Assembly: GCA_003246255.1 (NCBI GenBank)
Contig: QKAX01000173.1
Coordinates: 1 to 62,563, forward strand
Length of the DNA: 62,563 nucleotides
Source: Demequina lutea
Lineage (GTDB): Bacteria; Actinomycetota; Actinomycetes; Actinomycetales; Demequinaceae
Direction of reading: 5' to 3'
Shown: piece after piece, positions 54,400-60,403 of the stretch
Layout of the letters: each line of letters opens with the position of its first letter
Numbering within the stretch: the first letter of the stretch is position 1
The notes under the pieces: generated by a model
The model's input: the letters and a program-made list of their open reading frames with translations, nothing else
Databases searched by the model: none
Told to the model about the DNA's origin: nothing
Translations under genes and position numbers: made by a program

Positions 54400-54526
54400 G
54401 CGGCCAGCGTAGTGGTGGGCGTGGCGGGAGCGGCTAGCCGTGTGCCGACGCGCGAGCGAAGAGTTGCTGTGACTAGGGTTGAGCGCAGCGGCCCCGTCGG
54501 TTCGGTCGCGTGTCCGTGGGGGTGAG

Positions 54527-54976
54527 ATGAACAACAGCGTTCCGAAGGCCGGCCGTTGGAGCCAGCGTGAGATGCGGGAGAGGGCCCGGTTCAGCTACTT
54601 GAGTTTTGACTGGCCGGAGCCCGTCTCGATCGCATCTAAGGGCTACGTGGGCACTGGTGGAGTCTGGTGCCTCGCTGCCCGCTCCACGCTTGAGATTGTT
54701 GCGACGCTGTCAGCGTTCCCGGGCCTGCGGCATTGGAGCGCACGCTCGGTCGTCTACGTCGGACGCTCCGCAAGCTCGATGATCGCGGTTCGGCTACGCC
54801 CCACATGGATCCAGCCGCCGGGGGAGGCCAAAGAGCTGTGGAGAGTGCCTCTAGCCGCGGTGCGAATGCCGGACCGTGCGGTGGGAAACTTCTCGCTCGT
54901 CGACTTTGACGGCCACCCAGTGTGGGTTCCCACCGACGAGATCGACAGCCTGCTCGCAGGACGTCGTACGGCGTGA
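54527..54976 (+). CDS. Orphan protein, unknown function
   Basis: Protein of 149 residues that I do not recognise. It is basic and Trp-rich, with KGYVGTGGVWCLAARSTLEIVATLSAF, WIQPPGEAKELWRVPLAAVRMPD and DFDGHPVWVPTDEIDSLL; the strand pattern suggests a small beta-rich fold. ATG 54527 has GGGGGTGAG directly upstream; the frame is open from 54479. Its codon use looks less GC-biased than its neighbours. With the Fic-like gene it interrupts the hisN-rsgA interval, so it may be acquired DNA. Confidence 0.5.
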   Translation: MNNSVPKAGRWSQREMRERARFSYLSFDWPEPVSIASKGYVGTGGVWCLAARSTLEIVATLSAFPGLRHWSARSVVYVGRSASSMIAVRLRPTWIQPPGEAKELWRVPLAAVRMPDRAVGNFSLVDFDGHPVWVPTDEIDSLLAGRRTA

Positions 54977-55247
54977 CGAACCTGTAGGGGGAGCAGCGGT
55001 AGATCCCCGCGGTTCTGTGAGAACCAACGTAAGGGCCGAAGCGGCACCAAGAGGGATCCGAAAGCCGGCTGCGGGGACGGCACCACAACGGCCTCCCAGG
55101 GCTTCCTGGAGAATCTCTGGCCCCTGACGCATGGGCACAGTTATGTGAGCCACAGTCTCTCGACACTTCATTGAGCACGCGCGTACTATTCCGAGTTAAG
55201 ACTAGAAACCGGAATATAGAACACGAGTTCCCGAGAGGCGGTGCGAC
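54977..55247. other. 271-bp non-coding stretch with an inverted repeat upstream of the Fic-like gene
   Basis: No gene is visible. A small hairpin (GGTTCT/AGAACC) lies at 55011-55025. The last ~80 bases are AT-rich for this genome and contain TATTCCG (55187-55193) and CGGAATA (55210-55216), with centres 23 bp apart (two helical turns). A TTGAGC at 55171 could be a -35. This looks like the promoter/operator of the Fic-like gene. Confidence 0.4.
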
Positions 55248-56414
55248 ATGGCAGTTCTGGCCCCCGTGCGCACGGAGCCTCGAGACTGGAACATCGAGGG
55301 CCACTGGGATCCGGGGCCGCACCGCTACGACGCCGCTGTGGCATCGCCCCTGGCCGACGCGGACCTGCTCGTGTCCGAGCATCCGGCGGCCGCGTGCGCC
55401 GACGCTGCCCTCGATCTTGCCCTGCTGGACCGGGGCCCGAGCGCGGCCGCTCCCGAGGCCGCGCGGCTGGTTCTACGAGCCGAGGCCATCGCATCGCACC
55501 TGCTAAACAGTCACTCGTTCACCCCGCGGCAGGTCGCCGCGGCGGAGGCCGGCCAGTCGACCACCGCGCAGGCAAGGGCCATCGCGAAGGAGCAACGCCG
55601 CCTCGAGGAGCACCTCGACGCCTCCCGCAGGGCTGTCAGTCTGGGTGCCATCGCCCTCGCCTACGCGCCCCCGCGCCGCATGGCGTCAGGGCAGCTCGCC
55701 GCTGCCGCCTACAGGTCCACGCAGACCTGGCGGGGGGGCACCGAGATGTGGCCGCGCGGCGCCGACTATGTCCCCCCGCATCCTGCACGGATCGCGGAGG
55801 CGATGGACGATCTTGTCGAATTCGCCTCTAGAACCGACATCGACCCCATCGCGCAGGCCGCCGTCGCATGTGGGCAGATCAGGACCCTCGACCCCTTCCC
55901 CAAAGGCGCCGACAGGGTGGGCCGCGCCGTCCTGCAAGGAGTCCTTCGCTTTCGGGGCGCCCACCGCGCCCTCGTGCCGCCAGTCTCGGCGGCGCTCCTC
56001 GCCGCAGGCGGCACGCACGACGCCGCGTGGCGGGCGCTGCGCGGAGGCGACCCCGACTTCATCGTCGGCCTGGTAGCGCGAGCCGTGAGCCGCGCGTCGA
56101 ACGAGGCCGCGCGCTGGCTGCCCGAGGTGCTCGCACTGCCCGAAGCCTGGGCCAAGCAGGCCAAGCCCCGCGCCAAGTCGGCGGCGGCGACCCTGCTGCC
56201 GCACCTCGTGGGCCAACCGGTGGTCACCACCGAGACCGTCATGGAGCTCACGGGTGCGTCGCAGTCCAGCGCGTACGGCGCGATCGCCAAGTTGGCCGAG
56301 TCCGGGGTGCTTACGCGCGTGAGCCCCACGCGCCGGGATACAGCGTGGGCGGCGATGGACGTGTACGACGCGACGTTCGCCCTGGTCGAGCGGCTCGCTG
56401 ACCCGCGACGCTAG
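55248..56414 (+). CDS. Fic-fold protein with degenerate catalytic and inhibitory motifs
   Basis: Protein of 388 residues with the layout of Fic-family AMP-transferases fused to a C-terminal winged helix (~300-388, TVMELTGASQSSAYGAIAKLAESGVL). The active loop, normally HPFxxGNGRxGR, reads LDPFPKGADRVGR: aspartate (D215) replaces the catalytic histidine, lysine the metal-binding acid, and Ala-Asp the Asn-Gly. The inhibitory helix motif (S/T)xxxE(G/N) corresponds to SHLLNS (83-88), without the glutamate. It is therefore probably not an AMPylator; a DNA-binding or nucleotide-sensing regulator is an inference. ATG 55248 has GAGAGG upstream. It ends six bases from the convergent rsgA stop. Confidence 0.75.
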   Translation: MAVLAPVRTEPRDWNIEGHWDPGPHRYDAAVASPLADADLLVSEHPAAACADAALDLALLDRGPSAAAPEAARLVLRAEAIASHLLNSHSFTPRQVAAAEAGQSTTAQARAIAKEQRRLEEHLDASRRAVSLGAIALAYAPPRRMASGQLAAAAYRSTQTWRGGTEMWPRGADYVPPHPARIAEAMDDLVEFASRTDIDPIAQAAVACGQIRTLDPFPKGADRVGRAVLQGVLRFRGAHRALVPPVSAALLAAGGTHDAAWRALRGGDPDFIVGLVARAVSRASNEAARWLPEVLALPEAWAKQAKPRAKSAAATLLPHLVGQPVVTTETVMELTGASQSSAYGAIAKLAESGVLTRVSPTRRDTAWAAMDVYDATFALVERLADPRR

Positions 56415-56420
56415 CGCCCG

Positions 56421-57437
56421 CTAGTACGTCTCGGCGGCCAGGCGCGAGGTGAGCAGGCGGCGGATCGAGTCGAGCTTGATGGCGCGCTCGGGCGATCCCT
56501 CGGCCCACGAGTCGAGCTCGCAGCCGTCGGCCGCGCTCAGGTGCTGGCAGCCGCGCGGGCAGTGTTCTGCCTCGTAATCGGCCACATCGGGGAACGCGAG
56601 CAGCATGTGCTCGGGGTCCACGTGCGCCAGCCCAAAGGACCTGACGCCCGGGGTGTCGATGATCCAGCCGCCGCCCGGCACCTCCAGCATCAGCGAGGAC
56701 GTGGACGTGTGCCGCCCGCGCCCCGTGACGTCGTTGACGCGGCCCACGGCGCGATCGGCATTGGGCACCAGGGCGTTCACCAGCGTGGACTTGCCCACGC
56801 CCGACGGCCCCACGAACACCGTGCGCAGATCCCGCAACTGGTTCTGTAGCAGGGCAAATCCTGGATCCGCGGCAGGGCCGCCCTCGCGCTTCACTGACAC
56901 CTCAATGACCGTCACGCCCAGCGGCTCGTACAGCGCGCGCAGCGGGTCGGCCGAGGCCAGATCGCCCTTGGTGACCACCAGCACGGCGTCCAGGCCGGCG
57001 TCAAAACCTGCCACCAGCGCGCGGTCAATCACGCGAGGGTTGGGCTCTGGATCCGCGGCGGCGGCCACAAATGCCAGCTGATGCGCATTCGCCACGACGA
57101 CGCGCTCGGTGGTGTCGCTGTCATCCGCGGTCCTTCGCAGCGCCGACGCCCGTTCCTCCCGGCGCACGATCCTCGCCAGCGTGTCGGGCTTGCCGCTCAC
57201 GTCGCCCACCAGGCCCACCACATCGCCCACCACGAGCCCGCGGCGGCCCAACTCGCGCGCCTTCACCGCGGTGACCACCACGTCGTCCACATGGACCGTG
57301 TAGCGGCCCCTATCCACAGAAATGACGGTGCCGGCTACCGCGTCCTCGTGCGCGGGGCGACGCTTGGAGCGCGGCCTGGAACCCCTGCCAGGGCGTACCT
57401 TGGCGTCGGACTCGTCGTAGTGGCCCCAGTCGCTCAC
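56421..57437 (-). CDS. rsgA: Ribosome small-subunit GTPase RsgA
   Basis: Circularly permuted GTPase of 338 residues for late 30S maturation: an N-terminal OB fold (~40-105, VISVDRGRYTVHVDDV), G4 VVTKGDL, G1 VGPSGVGKSTLVNAL, G3 IIDTPGVRSFG, and a C-terminal zinc region CPRGCQHLSAADGC. GTG 57437 overlaps the aroA stop (GTGA at 57434-57437). An aroA-rsgA pair is widespread in actinobacteria (Rv3227-Rv3228 region). Confidence 0.95.
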   Translation of the reverse strand: MSDWGHYDESDAKVRPGRGSRPRSKRRPAHEDAVAGTVISVDRGRYTVHVDDVVVTAVKARELGRRGLVVGDVVGLVGDVSGKPDTLARIVRREERASALRRTADDSDTTERVVVANAHQLAFVAAAADPEPNPRVIDRALVAGFDAGLDAVLVVTKGDLASADPLRALYEPLGVTVIEVSVKREGGPAADPGFALLQNQLRDLRTVFVGPSGVGKSTLVNALVPNADRAVGRVNDVTGRGRHTSTSSLMLEVPGGGWIIDTPGVRSFGLAHVDPEHMLLAFPDVADYEAEHCPRGCQHLSAADGCELDSWAEGSPERAIKLDSIRRLLTSRLAAETY

Positions 57438-58789
57438 GCGCCGAGCATGCCCTTCCACATGGCGGGGAACTCCGGCATGGTCTTGGAGGTGGTGCCCACA
57501 TTCAGCACGTCAACGCCCGGCACGCGCAGGCCGATCACGGCGGCAAACGTGGCCATGCGGTGATCGTGATACGTCTCCATGACGGCGCCGGTCAAACCGG
57601 CATCGTCCCTGGCAGGATCGGGTGCGCCGTTGAATAGCAGCGACGTCTCACCCGCCTCGCACCAGCCGCCCAGGCGCTTGATCTCGGCGGCGATGGCGGC
57701 CAGGCGGTCCGTCTCGTGCCCGCGCAGGTGTCCAATGCCGTTGAGGGTGCTCGGGCCGTCCGCCAGCGCGCACAGGGCGGCGATGGTGGGGGTGATCTCG
57801 CCAGCCGGGCCTAGGTCTGCCGTGATCGCGCGCACGGTGCCGTTGCCGGTGACCGACATGACGTCGCCCTCGAGCGTGCACGTGGCGCCCATGCGCTCAA
57901 GAATCTGGGGGAACAGCGCGCCAGGCTGGGTGGTCGTGGCGGGCCAACCCGGGATGCGCACGGTGCCGCCGGCCACGAGCGCCGCCGCCATGAACGGGCC
58001 TGCGTTGCTGAGGTCCGGCTCCACGCGCACGTCGCTGAGCGTCAGCGCGCCGGGGTGCACCACCCACGTGCGCTCGTTGGGCTGATCCACGCGGATCCCG
58101 GCTTCGCGCAGCGCCTCACATGTCATGTCGATGTGCGGCAGGCTGGGCAGCAGCTGGCCCGTGTGGCGCACAGTGAGGCCCTGAGGCAGTCGTGGCGCCA
58201 CCAGCAGCAGCGCCGTCACAAACTGCGAGGAGCTGGACGAATCCAGCGCCACCTCGGCCGGAACAGTGGCCGGGGGAGTGACTGTGAACGGCAGCGTGCC
58301 GCGACCCTCATCGTCCACCACGGCGCCCAGCTCGCGCAGCGCCTCGAGCAGCGGGCCCATGGGGCGCACGCGTGCGCCCTCGTCGCCGTCAAAGGTGACG
58401 GGCCTGGTATCTCCCGCAATGCCGGCCAGCAGCACCAGCGGCGGCACAAAGCGCATCACGGTGCCGGCGAGGCCACAGTCGATGTGCACTCCACCCCGCA
58501 GCGGGCCGGGGGTGATGGTCCACGAACCATCGGCCCCGTCCGTCGTGACCCCCACGCCCAGGGCGCGAAGCGCGTCCATCATCAGCTGCGAATCGCGCGA
58601 GATGAGGCCGCCGCGCACGGTGACCGGAGCATCGGCAAGCGCGGCGAGCAGCAGATAGCGGTTTGTCAGCGACTTAGAGCCGGGCACCTCCACCGTCGCG
58701 TCGAGCGGCGCGGAGCCGTGAATGGGAGCCGAAACGGGGGCAGGCCACACCTGGCCGGGGCCGACGCCCGGCTCGAGGGGCGTGCTCAC
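57434..58789 (-). CDS. aroA: 3-phosphoshikimate 1-carboxyvinyltransferase (EPSP synthase)
   Basis: Shikimate-pathway enzyme of 451 residues that joins PEP to shikimate-3-phosphate. VPGSKSLTNRYLLLAALA (substrate loop), CGLAGTVMRF, DGDEGARVRPMGPLLEAL, LDSSSSSQFVTALLL and ETYHDHRMATFAAVIGL are conserved. The usual GNAGT loop is GLAGT here. GTG 58789 overlaps the DoxX-gene stop (GTGA), and its stop overlaps rsgA, giving a coupled doxX-aroA-rsgA operon. Confidence 0.95.
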   Translation of the reverse strand: MSTPLEPGVGPGQVWPAPVSAPIHGSAPLDATVEVPGSKSLTNRYLLLAALADAPVTVRGGLISRDSQLMMDALRALGVGVTTDGADGSWTITPGPLRGGVHIDCGLAGTVMRFVPPLVLLAGIAGDTRPVTFDGDEGARVRPMGPLLEALRELGAVVDDEGRGTLPFTVTPPATVPAEVALDSSSSSQFVTALLLVAPRLPQGLTVRHTGQLLPSLPHIDMTCEALREAGIRVDQPNERTWVVHPGALTLSDVRVEPDLSNAGPFMAAALVAGGTVRIPGWPATTTQPGALFPQILERMGATCTLEGDVMSVTGNGTVRAITADLGPAGEITPTIAALCALADGPSTLNGIGHLRGHETDRLAAIAAEIKRLGGWCEAGETSLLFNGAPDPARDDAGLTGAVMETYHDHRMATFAAVIGLRVPGVDVLNVGTTSKTMPEFPAMWKGMLGA

Positions 58790-59343
58790 GCGGCCTTGCG
58801 AGCGGCCCAGCCGCGCAGACCGGGAGCCTCGCGGCGTGCCTCCACCTTGCGCTGAGCCGCCTTGCTCTTGACCTCGGCGGCCTTGGCCTTCGCCTTTGCC
58901 TTGCGGGCCTTCTTGCGCTGCACGTGACGCACTGAGTGGCCTGCGGAGGCGGCGATCATGGCGCCTCCCATGAGGGACAGGTTCTTGAGGAACTCCTCGG
59001 TGGCGGCATCGCGCTCGGGGCCCTCGGGGAGCTTCCAGAACGGCGTCGTGGAGGCCACAGTGAGGCCCGCGAGCGCCGTCAGGGCAAGGCCCGCAGTGCG
59101 CGGCGTGCGCGAGAACGCCAGCACGGTGGCTGCTGCGGCGGTGGCGGCGCCGTGCACGCGCACCACGTCCTCCACGCCCACGCCCTCGATGCCCGCCTCC
59201 TTGAGTGCGGGCGTCACCTTGTCCAGCAGGGGACCCACGGTGGGCTCCGCGGCGGCGGCGCGCACCTGAGGCTCCAGGGCGTCGCGCACACCCCCATACA
59301 CAAACCACGAGGCGAGCAGCGGGCGAGCGAGCGCACGAATCAT
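58786..59343 (-). CDS. DoxX-family membrane protein with Lys/Ala-rich tail
   Basis: Protein of 185 residues: a DoxX core of about four helices (~1-135, [19 protein letters not shown]), then a highly basic C-terminal tail of ~45 residues ([18 protein letters not shown]). DoxX proteins are membrane proteins often linked to redox homeostasis, which suits the neighbouring SigR-RsrA switch. TAGGCT ends six bases before ATG 59343 on the minus strand, a leaderless start. It lies divergent to sigR; the sigR promoter begins ~70 bases away. Confidence 0.8.
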
Positions 59344-59411
59344 GCCTTCAGCCTACCCATTCGCGCTGAGGCGTCCACGGGAGAGGTCCCGCCGACAACA
59401 CGCGGGCCTCG

Positions 59412-59437
59412 GGAATGGCGCGCGCGTAGGCGGCGTT
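59412..59437 (+). promoter_or_regulatory. SigR-type promoter upstream of sigR
   Basis: GGAAT at 59412-59416 is followed after exactly 18 bases by GTT at 59435-59437. This matches the established SigR/SigH consensus GGAAT-N18-GTT and implies autoregulation. The expected start site falls at or just before an in-frame ATG at 59447. Confidence 0.75.
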
Positions 59438-59521
59438 TGGCCTCTCATGACAGTTACCGAATCGGCGTCAACTCGCACGCGGTCCGGCCTGCAGTCACAA
59501 GGGCCGGTACGCTCGCTCACG

Positions 59522-60097
59522 ATGAGCGAAAAGACCAACCTCGATTTCGAGGCCGAAGCGCTGTCCTACATGGACCAGTTGTACGCCGCTGCGCTGCGTA
59601 TGACTCGCAATGGCGCCGACGCCGAAGACCTTGTTCAGGAGACCTTTGCCAAGGCCTTCGCTGCGCAAGACAAGTTCACGCCTGGTACCAACCTGAAGGC
59701 CTGGCTGTATCGCATCCAGACAAACGCCTTCATCAACACGTACCGCAAGAAGCAGCGTGAGCCCAAGCGCACCGATGCCGACACGGTGGAGGACTGGCAG
59801 CTTGCTGCCGCGGCCGAGCACCAGTCCGCCGGTCTTGCGTCGGCCGAGGAGGCCGCGCTCGACGCCCTGGGCGACGACGCCATTCGTGACGCACTTGCAG
59901 AACTGTCGGACGACTTCCGCATGGCTGTGTACCTCAGCGATGTCGAAGGCTTCGCCTACAAGGAGATCGCGGAAATCATGGATACCCCCGTGGGAACCGT
60001 GATGTCTCGTCTGCACCGCGGCCGCAAGCTGCTGCGCGAGAAGCTGCGTGATTACGCGGCAGAGCGCGGCATCTATGACCGCAAGGCGGAGGCGTGA
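59522..60097 (+). CDS. sigR: ECF sigma factor SigR (SigH), thiol-oxidative stress
   Basis: Group 4 sigma factor of 191 residues: region 2 with [17 protein letters not shown] and [19 protein letters not shown], region 4 with [35 protein letters not shown]. An RsrA-like anti-sigma gene follows, as in Streptomyces sigR and mycobacterial sigH. ATG 59522 gives the standard length, and TACGCT ends eight bases upstream. An in-frame ATG at 59447, just after a SigR-type promoter, would add 25 residues. This parallels the unstable long isoform of Streptomyces, and both products may exist. Confidence 0.93.
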
Positions 60098-60157
60098 TGG
60101 ATACGAACGTCTGTCCACAGGCAGCAGGGGGCCGAGTGGCAGCTGAGGAGGTGAATT

Positions 60158-60403
60158 ATGCCGAAGCGACAGTGTGAAGAAGCGCTGACAAAGCTCTTTG
60201 AGTACATCGATGGGGAGCTCTCCGATGAGGAGCTGCTGCGCATCGGTGCACACCTGAAGGAGTGCCCGCCGTGCGAGGCTGAGCATCGGATCAATGAGAA
60301 GATCCGCCTGCTGGTGTCGAAGGCGAACGGGGAGTCAGCCCCGCATCAGCTGCGCGAGCGCGTGCTGAGCACTATTCAGATGGCTCGCACCGAAGCCACG
60401 TAG
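60158..60403 (+). CDS. rsrA: Zinc redox anti-sigma factor RsrA
   Basis: ZAS-family anti-sigma factor of 81 residues. Zinc-site residues C6, H32, C36 and C39 keep the spacing of Streptomyces RsrA, with the H-x3-C-x2-C motif HLKECPPC. Disulfide formation under oxidation releases zinc and frees SigR. AGGAGGTGA before ATG 60158 is a strong ribosome site, which should keep RsrA abundant relative to SigR. Separated from sigR by 60 bases and ended by the hairpin at 60463. Confidence 0.95.
   Translation: MPKRQCEEALTKLFEYIDGELSDEELLRIGAHLKECPPCEAEHRINEKIRLLVSKANGESAPHQLRERVLSTIQMARTEAT

What the first reader, a model, noticed from the sequence alone, without database searches (positions are those of the whole stretch)
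55248..56414. Fic-fold protein that has lost both the catalytic and the autoinhibitory signature
Seen: the HPFxxGNGR loop reads DPFPKGADR (D215-R223), and the (S/T)xxxE(G/N) inhibitory motif reads SHLLNS (83-88), while PF, G, the final R/GR and a C-terminal winged helix remain. Known: Fic AMP transfer needs the loop histidine, and the inhibitory glutamate exists to restrain it. Joint loss suggests selection for a non-AMPylating role, perhaps a ligand-gated DNA-binding regulator. Pseudo-Fic proteins are little studied, so this may be an undescribed branch.
Basis: partly seen in the sequence, partly recalled or inferred. Interest (0 to 1): 0.72.

Follow-up and report, generated by a model that had tools for sequence, protein, structure and literature searches.

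The report
Dead Fic enzyme keeping DNA-binding half
A bacterial protein with the fold of a protein-tagging toxin enzyme has lost, together with its two known orthologues, the residues needed for the reaction and for its safety catch, but keeps its DNA-binding end and a mirror-image site in front of its own gene, so it probably survives as a regulator rather than as an enzyme.

Summary
Window 55248-56414 encodes an intact 388-aa Fic protein (model pLDDT 91; closest solved structure 7cb8, Z 46) reading DPFPKGADR and SHLLNS. It is not a lone copy: two syntenic Demequina orthologues (46% and 44% identical, beside rsgA) read QPFTSGNGR and QPFAGGNGR, with SCRIDG and SGALDA. In 46 of 46 counted relatives the catalytic His, Mg-binding Asp and inhibitory Glu are kept; all three orthologues lack them. 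They form one clade (100/100) on a tree built without those columns.

Flap, helices 3-4 and winged helix stay conserved. A dyad lies 28-31 nt before all three start codons. Long palindromes of this layout precede many active relatives too (16 of 48 stretches against 0-2 in four control sets). This predicts self-repression, as shown for CccR, whose catalytic-His mutant still represses. Best reading: a non-AMPylating, self-regulating DNA-binding pseudo-Fic.

Against: the window copy evolves fast, its dyad alone is not significant, and no second target was found. Non-catalytic Fic proteins are known as a kind (BepC, AvrB, Doc clade D2): a new variant of a known kind.

The parts
55248..56414 (+). 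pseudo-Fic gene, 388 aa, Fic domain plus C-terminal winged helix
   Evidence: ORF; PF02661 37.2 bits; AF2 model and 7cb8 match
55494..55511 (+). degenerate inhibitory motif SHLLNS (83-88); Glu87 replaced by Asn
   Evidence: E87 46 of 46 in counted relatives, D in both orthologues
55710..55781 (+). flap (target-docking hairpin) region, residues 155-178, with clade-specific Trp168 and Thr160
   Evidence: W168 and T160 in 3 of 3 orthologues and 0 of 46 relatives; 'flap' assigned by alignment and recall
55890..55916 (+). degenerate Fic loop DPFPKGADR (215-223)
56160..56402 (+). C-terminal winged helix, residues 305-385; probable recognition helix 339-351
   Evidence: DSSP of model; whole-length match to 7cb8 and SoFic 3zcn; weak Pfam hits to AbiEi_4/TrmB below cut-off
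55187..55216 (.). dyad TATTCCG-N16-CGGAATA, candidate operator, 31 nt before ATG
   Evidence: same-spaced dyads before both orthologues; not significant on its own
55160..55189 (+). sigma-70-like promoter TCGACA-N18-TACTAT whose second hexamer overlaps the left arm of the dyad
   Evidence: consensus scan, 9 of 12
56421..57458 (-). rsgA (ribosome GTPase), convergent neighbour, also beside both orthologues
   Evidence: PF03193
53608..54534 (-). inositol-monophosphatase-like (hisN-like) gene on the other side
   Evidence: PF00459; next to rsgA in 18 of 30 rsgA loci

Best explanation
A pseudo-Fic: a class II, SoFic/CccR-type Fic-winged-helix protein whose Demequina lineage lost AMP transfer and the autoinhibitory Glu, but kept the scaffold, the flap, the winged helix and the promoter dyad. 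It most likely works as a dimeric DNA-binding repressor of its own promoter, in which the dead Fic body serves dimerisation and perhaps binding of a partner at the flap. Shown: losses, fold, clade, retained regions, dyads. Inferred: loss of activity, DNA binding, self-repression, any partner.
For: Clade-wide loss of His215, Asp219, Glu212 and inhibitory Glu87 (3 of 3 against 0 of 46). One clade, 100/100, on a tree without loop and inhibitory columns. Purifying selection between the two orthologues: dN 0.233, dS 0.979. In the orthologue pair, flap 0.87, helices 3-4 0.83 and winged helix 0.72 identity match the seven active sisters (0.80, 0.78, 0.75), while the inhibitory stretch falls to 0.48 against 0.95. 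Where the two orthologues agree, the window differs in 12 of 50 columns of flap and helices 3-4 but in 39 of 68 of loop and following helices, p 3.5e-4. Dyads with 16-nt gap at -28/-31 in 3 of 3 genes; 10 of 14 arm columns invariant against 27 of 82 others, p 0.015, post hoc. Family-wide palindromes: best dyad >=9/10 in 16 of 48 upstream stretches against 2/46, 0/45, 2/50, 2/50 in controls and a shuffle mean of 0.4. CccR precedent.
Against: The window dyad alone is not significant (73 of 300 shuffles as good; p~0.19). The pseudo-clade sites score 7, 6 and 7 of 10, below many active relatives, and an automatic scan chose another site for G039. The window branch is long (1.32 against 0.26 and 0.32). 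The window-derived pattern finds no second convincing target, and with up to 3 mismatches it does not find G034's own site. A link between recognition helix and site vanishes for distant pairs (rho -0.09, p 0.11).
Confidence: 0.5

Rival explanations
1. Decay: the gene is on the way out, the enzyme being lost first, and the window copy is further along than the QPF orthologues.
For: Window end branch 1.32. Three-point arithmetic by hand gives a window-side dN/dS of about 0.6 against about 0.2 and 0.3 for the orthologues. N221, G222, H208 and F211 are also lost in the window copy alone. In the rsgA tree's five-member clade two members lack the gene (none found in G012 and G033). Outer arms of the dyad are eroded.
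Against: Intact 388-codon frame; in a substitution-only simulation at 0.71 changes per site 1 of 500 (GC 0.70) or 34 of 500 (GC 0.86) runs stay open. The orthologue pair is under purifying selection. Changes in the window copy are unevenly spread.
Confidence: 0.22
2. Non-catalytic binding partner or decoy: the conserved flap and Fic body bind a target or an active Fic paralogue and block it.
For: Flap conserved with clade-specific Trp168. Active HPF paralogues exist in the same genome. Fic-Fic neutralisation is described in C. fetus and non-catalytic binding in BepC.
Against: No Fic neighbour in the three loci. The inhibitory Glu that would silence a partner in trans is lost. Paralogue L002 has its own, different dyad.
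Confidence: 0.15
3. Altered or residual chemistry with Gln or Asp in place of His.
For: Both orthologues keep GNGR. Authors of PMC4454073 argue that the His-to-Gln Doc clade D2 may not be dead. Lys219 sits where BepC has Lys.
Against: All three lack the Asp/Glu metal ligand and Glu212; the window copy also has A221 and D222 in the anion-binding loop.
Confidence: 0.1

Closest known systems
CccR, Fic-HTH protein of Yersinia pseudotuberculosis (PMC9755527; abstract, passages, section 10 part 1 of 2, Discussion seen)
   Same: Class II Fic body plus C-terminal HTH; represses its own promoter through 10-bp inverted repeats near -35/-10; catalytic-His mutant still represses in recipient cells
   Different: CccR is an active AMPylase with intact inhibitory motif; its repeats are 26 bp apart, here 14-16; DNA binding here is predicted only
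SoFic family (3eqx/3zcn; PADLOC SoFic) and 7cb8 of Mycobacterium marinum
   Same: Fold over the whole length (Z 33.7 and 46.4); PADLOC SoFic E 1.8e-29
   Different: 7cb8 keeps the loop HPFTDGNGR; SoFic is taken as an active-type member (recalled). Here His, Asp/Glu and inhibitory Glu are lost
CbFic2 of Coxiella burnetii (PMC10628234; passages seen)
   Same: Fic plus winged HTH, DNA binding changes the oligomeric state
   Different: Active AMPylase and deAMPylase, HPFDDGNGR
BepC and AvrB (PMC7842960; passages seen)
   Same: Fic body used without catalysis; BepC has Lys at the position of window Lys219
   Different: Secreted effectors acting on eukaryotic hosts; BepC keeps His and GNGR; no winged helix (recalled)
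Doc clade D2, Qx[F|Y]x[D|E][G|V]NKR (PMC4454073; section 6 seen)
   Same: His to Gln fixed in a clade, as in the two orthologues
   Different: Single-domain Doc proteins that keep the acidic residue; not Fic-winged-helix

Membership tests
Fic/Fido superfamily (fold) | Pfam Fic above the curated cut-off | tested here: met
   37.2 bits against 24
Fic/Fido superfamily (fold) | Fic fold | tested here: met
   pLDDT 91.4; 7cb8 Z 46.4 over 376 residues
Active Fic AMPylase | HPFx[D/E]GN[G/K]R loop with catalytic His | tested here: not met
   DPFPKGADR; orthologues QPF
Active Fic AMPylase | AMP transfer | not testable with these tools
   needs an assay
Class II autoinhibited Fic | N-terminal (S/T)xxxE(G/N) | tested here: not met
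   SHLLNS; orthologues SCRIDG and SGALDA; a helix is predicted at 69-86
Fic-winged-helix autorepressor (CccR type) | C-terminal winged helix | tested here: met
   whole-length matches to 7cb8 and 3zcn; secondary structure 312-384
Fic-winged-helix autorepressor (CccR type) | inverted repeat in own promoter | tested here: inconclusive
   same-spaced dyads in 3 of 3 orthologues and strong palindromes in the family, but single-locus significance is lacking
Fic-winged-helix autorepressor (CccR type) | binds and represses own promoter as a dimer | not testable with these tools
   needs EMSA and a reporter

The most novel reading that the evidence does not exclude
Actinomycete class II Fic-winged-helix genes are one-gene toxin-repressor units that police their own promoters through 34-bp palindromes (10-bp arms, 14-nt gap), and in Demequina one branch has thrown away the enzyme and its safety catch while keeping the repressor half: an enzyme-to-transcription-factor transition caught beside its active sisters.
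Probability: 0.4. Interest if true: 0.66.

Novelty: new variant of a known kind. Interest (0 to 1): 0.52.

Why it matters
Class II Fic proteins are said to be 80% of Fic proteins with almost nothing known of their function (CccR paper, Discussion). A natural clade that lost catalysis but kept the DNA-binding end separates the two halves by evolution, and gives a clean partner for the CccR His mutant. The predicted family-wide palindromes make self-repression directly testable in many harmless actinomycetes.

Tried and rejected
Rejected: a lone decaying copy (two orthologues share the loss); phage origin (no match in 50,697 phage records); plasmid relatives are below 60% identity (53 records); regulation of the active paralogue L002 (different dyad); a regulon (pattern searches: apart from the own promoter, hits in G000 are few, 3 further and 1, and were not followed up); a recognition-helix code (partial Mantel r 0.19, 1 of 2000, but no relation in 328 distant pairs; of the 33 loci, six rows were dropped there, L005, L013, L020, L024, L028 and L048, and the three pseudo-Fic sites were set by hand; L005 came back with its hand-set site). 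The search for related loci with one sequence found nothing. The dyad was first seen by eye in printed sequence and, so its tests are post hoc. Anatomical names (flap, recognition helix, anion-binding loop, Mg ligand) rest on alignment and recall.

Full report
What is there. Window 55248-56414 (+) is an open frame of 388 codons. Pfam sees Fic (37.2 bits, cut-off 24), PADLOC sees SoFic (E 1.8e-29), and the best PDB sequence match is 7cb8 (E 5.1e-40), titled a FIC-domain protein from Mycobacterium marinum in complex with CDP. AlphaFold2 on an alignment of 17 sequences gave mean pLDDT 91.4 and pTM 0.90; Foldseek and VIA-align put 7cb8 first (TM 0.90; Z 46.4, 376 residues, rmsd 2.3) and SoFic 3zcn next by Z (33.7). 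So the Fic fold and winged helix are secure.

The loss is clade-wide. The window genome belongs with Demequina: a close orthologue lies in record JASBTB010000142.1, Demequina sp. BWSM_2. Among 47 genomes of the family 16 have a match to the protein. Two matches stand out, G034 (L004, 46%) and G039 (L005 = L055, 44%), both beside rsgA as in the window. Their loops read QPFTSGNGR and QPFAGGNGR and their inhibitory motifs SCRIDG and SGALDA. An order-wide search (396 genomes, 240 with a match, 30 loci requested) brought the nearest outside relatives, L027-L033, all HPF.DGNGR with SS.IE[DE]. From 55 loci I left out four duplicates and one short fragment (L040), leaving 50 rows. In 46 of the 47 others (L003 not counted), His215, Asp219, Asn221, Gly222, Glu212 and inhibitory Glu87 are invariant; the three orthologues read D/Q/Q, K/S/G, A/N/N, D/G/G, R/L/L and N/D/D. 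L006 and L042 read HAF and are counted as keeping His. On a tree without the loop and inhibitory columns the three are one clade (100/100) next to seven active sisters (100/98); the tool warns that the window row is a long branch.

Is it kept by selection? Between the two orthologues identity is 67.5%, dN 0.233, dS 0.979; window against them dN 0.53-0.58 with dS near 1.2; rsgA of the same pairs dN 0.09-0.19. By hand from these figures the window side has dN/dS of about 0.6, the others about 0.2 and 0.3: relaxed, not flat. Constraint is uneven: where the orthologues agree, the window differs in 12 of 50 columns of flap and helices 3-4, 19 of 58 of the winged helix, but 39 of 68 of loop and following helices (p 3.5e-4 and 0.007). 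A substitution-only simulation leaves the frame open in 1 of 500 or 34 of 500 runs, depending on base composition, so the open frame alone is weak evidence. In the rsgA tree (quick method, 30 loci) the gene occurs in three of a five-member clade (99), absent from G012 and G033: accessory, probably inherited with losses. The rsgA-hisN interval is a variable site: hisN-like gene next to rsgA in 18 of 30 loci, larger or different inserts in G033, G037 and G012.

What is new in the flap. Thr160 and Trp168 are in 3 of 3 orthologues and 0 of 46 relatives, so the clade changed a surface that docks targets in known Fic proteins (role recalled and as stated in PMC7842960 passages).

A dyad before the gene. 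31 nt before the ATG lies TATTCCG-N16-CGGAATA, overlapping a sigma-70-like second hexamer. G039 has TGTTCCG-N16-CGGAATA and G034 TAATCTG-N16-CAGAATA, both 28 nt before the ATG; in G034 the centre of both arms changed together. Of 14 arm columns 10 are invariant against 27 of 82 others (p 0.015). These tests are post hoc, and each site alone is not significant. A genome search with the window-derived pattern (up to 3 mismatches) finds 2 places in G000, the promoter being the best, 2 in G039, the promoter being the best, and 1 in G034, not its promoter; a looser pattern finds G034's own site among five and misses G039's.

The same layout in the family. Many active relatives carry long palindromes, such as TAAGCGAGAA-N14-TTCTCGCTTA (L027) and CTTGTTCCGA-N14-TCGGAACAAG (L034). 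Best dyad of at least 8/10: 33 of 49 loci against a shuffle mean of 4.5 (maximum 9); at least 9/10: 16 against 0.4 (maximum 2). In real control stretches at least 9/10 occurs in 2/46, 0/45, 2/50 and 2/50, against 16/48 upstream; even gaps of about 6-16 are raised, odd ones not, with the peak at 14. Among 29 loci under 70% identical, exact 7-bp arms with gap 16 occur in 7 against a shuffle mean of 0.63 (maximum 4). Some automatic picks are GC-rich and far from the start and may be chance. A recognition-helix code is not robust.

How it most likely works. CccR, a Fic-HTH protein, represses its own promoter by binding AGATAATCAT-N26-ATGATAATCT as a dimer; its regulatory and toxic activities are separable, and a strain making the catalytic-His mutant still represses a reporter in recipient cells (section 10 part 1). 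CbFic2 changes oligomeric state on DNA (passages). I infer that the Demequina protein is the natural counterpart of that His mutant: a self-regulating DNA-binding protein with a dead Fic body. Nucleotide binding is unlikely in the window copy (A221, D222) and open in the QPF orthologues (GNGR kept). What it does beyond its own promoter is unknown; the changed flap suggests a partner.

Comparison and novelty. Non-catalytic use of a Fic body is known (BepC experimentally, AvrB; passages) and a His-to-Gln Doc clade is described (section 6). Ten paper searches of an open-licence library showed me no Fic-winged-helix pseudoenzyme and no Demequina Fic paper; most subscription papers are not in it. 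Hence: new variant of a known kind.

Noticed in passing
L034 upstream of its fic gene: Three interleaved N16 dyads (TGTTCCG/CGGAACA, AGTCGGA/TCCGACT, TATTCCG/CGGAATA), i.e. alternating half-sites; sisters L028, L030, L032 and L033 show similar arrays. Suggests cooperative binding of several dimers.
   Followed up: partly
rsgA-hisN interval: window 54535-56420; L086, L087, L088, L089: Variable site in Demequina: Fic here, a DUF222-HNH protein in G037, long or different inserts in G033, G012 and G034; two adjacent ORFs in L086 3505-5666 look like an IS21-type pair by eye.
   Followed up: partly
L006 and L042: HAFTDGNGR: loop Pro replaced by Ala in two related Fic proteins with His kept; L006 lies beside a transposase-like ORF by eye.
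   Followed up: no
window 54479-54976: ORF between hisN-like gene and pseudo-fic, no Pfam match, not found in the six neighbour regions searched.
   Followed up: no
L116 1465-1836 (G000:C116): Fourth Fic-domain match of the genome, 123 aa, Doc-like by eye (ALSDGNKR).
   Followed up: no
window 59342-60403: ECF-type sigma factor ORF followed by a small anti-sigma-like ORF, by eye.
   Followed up: no
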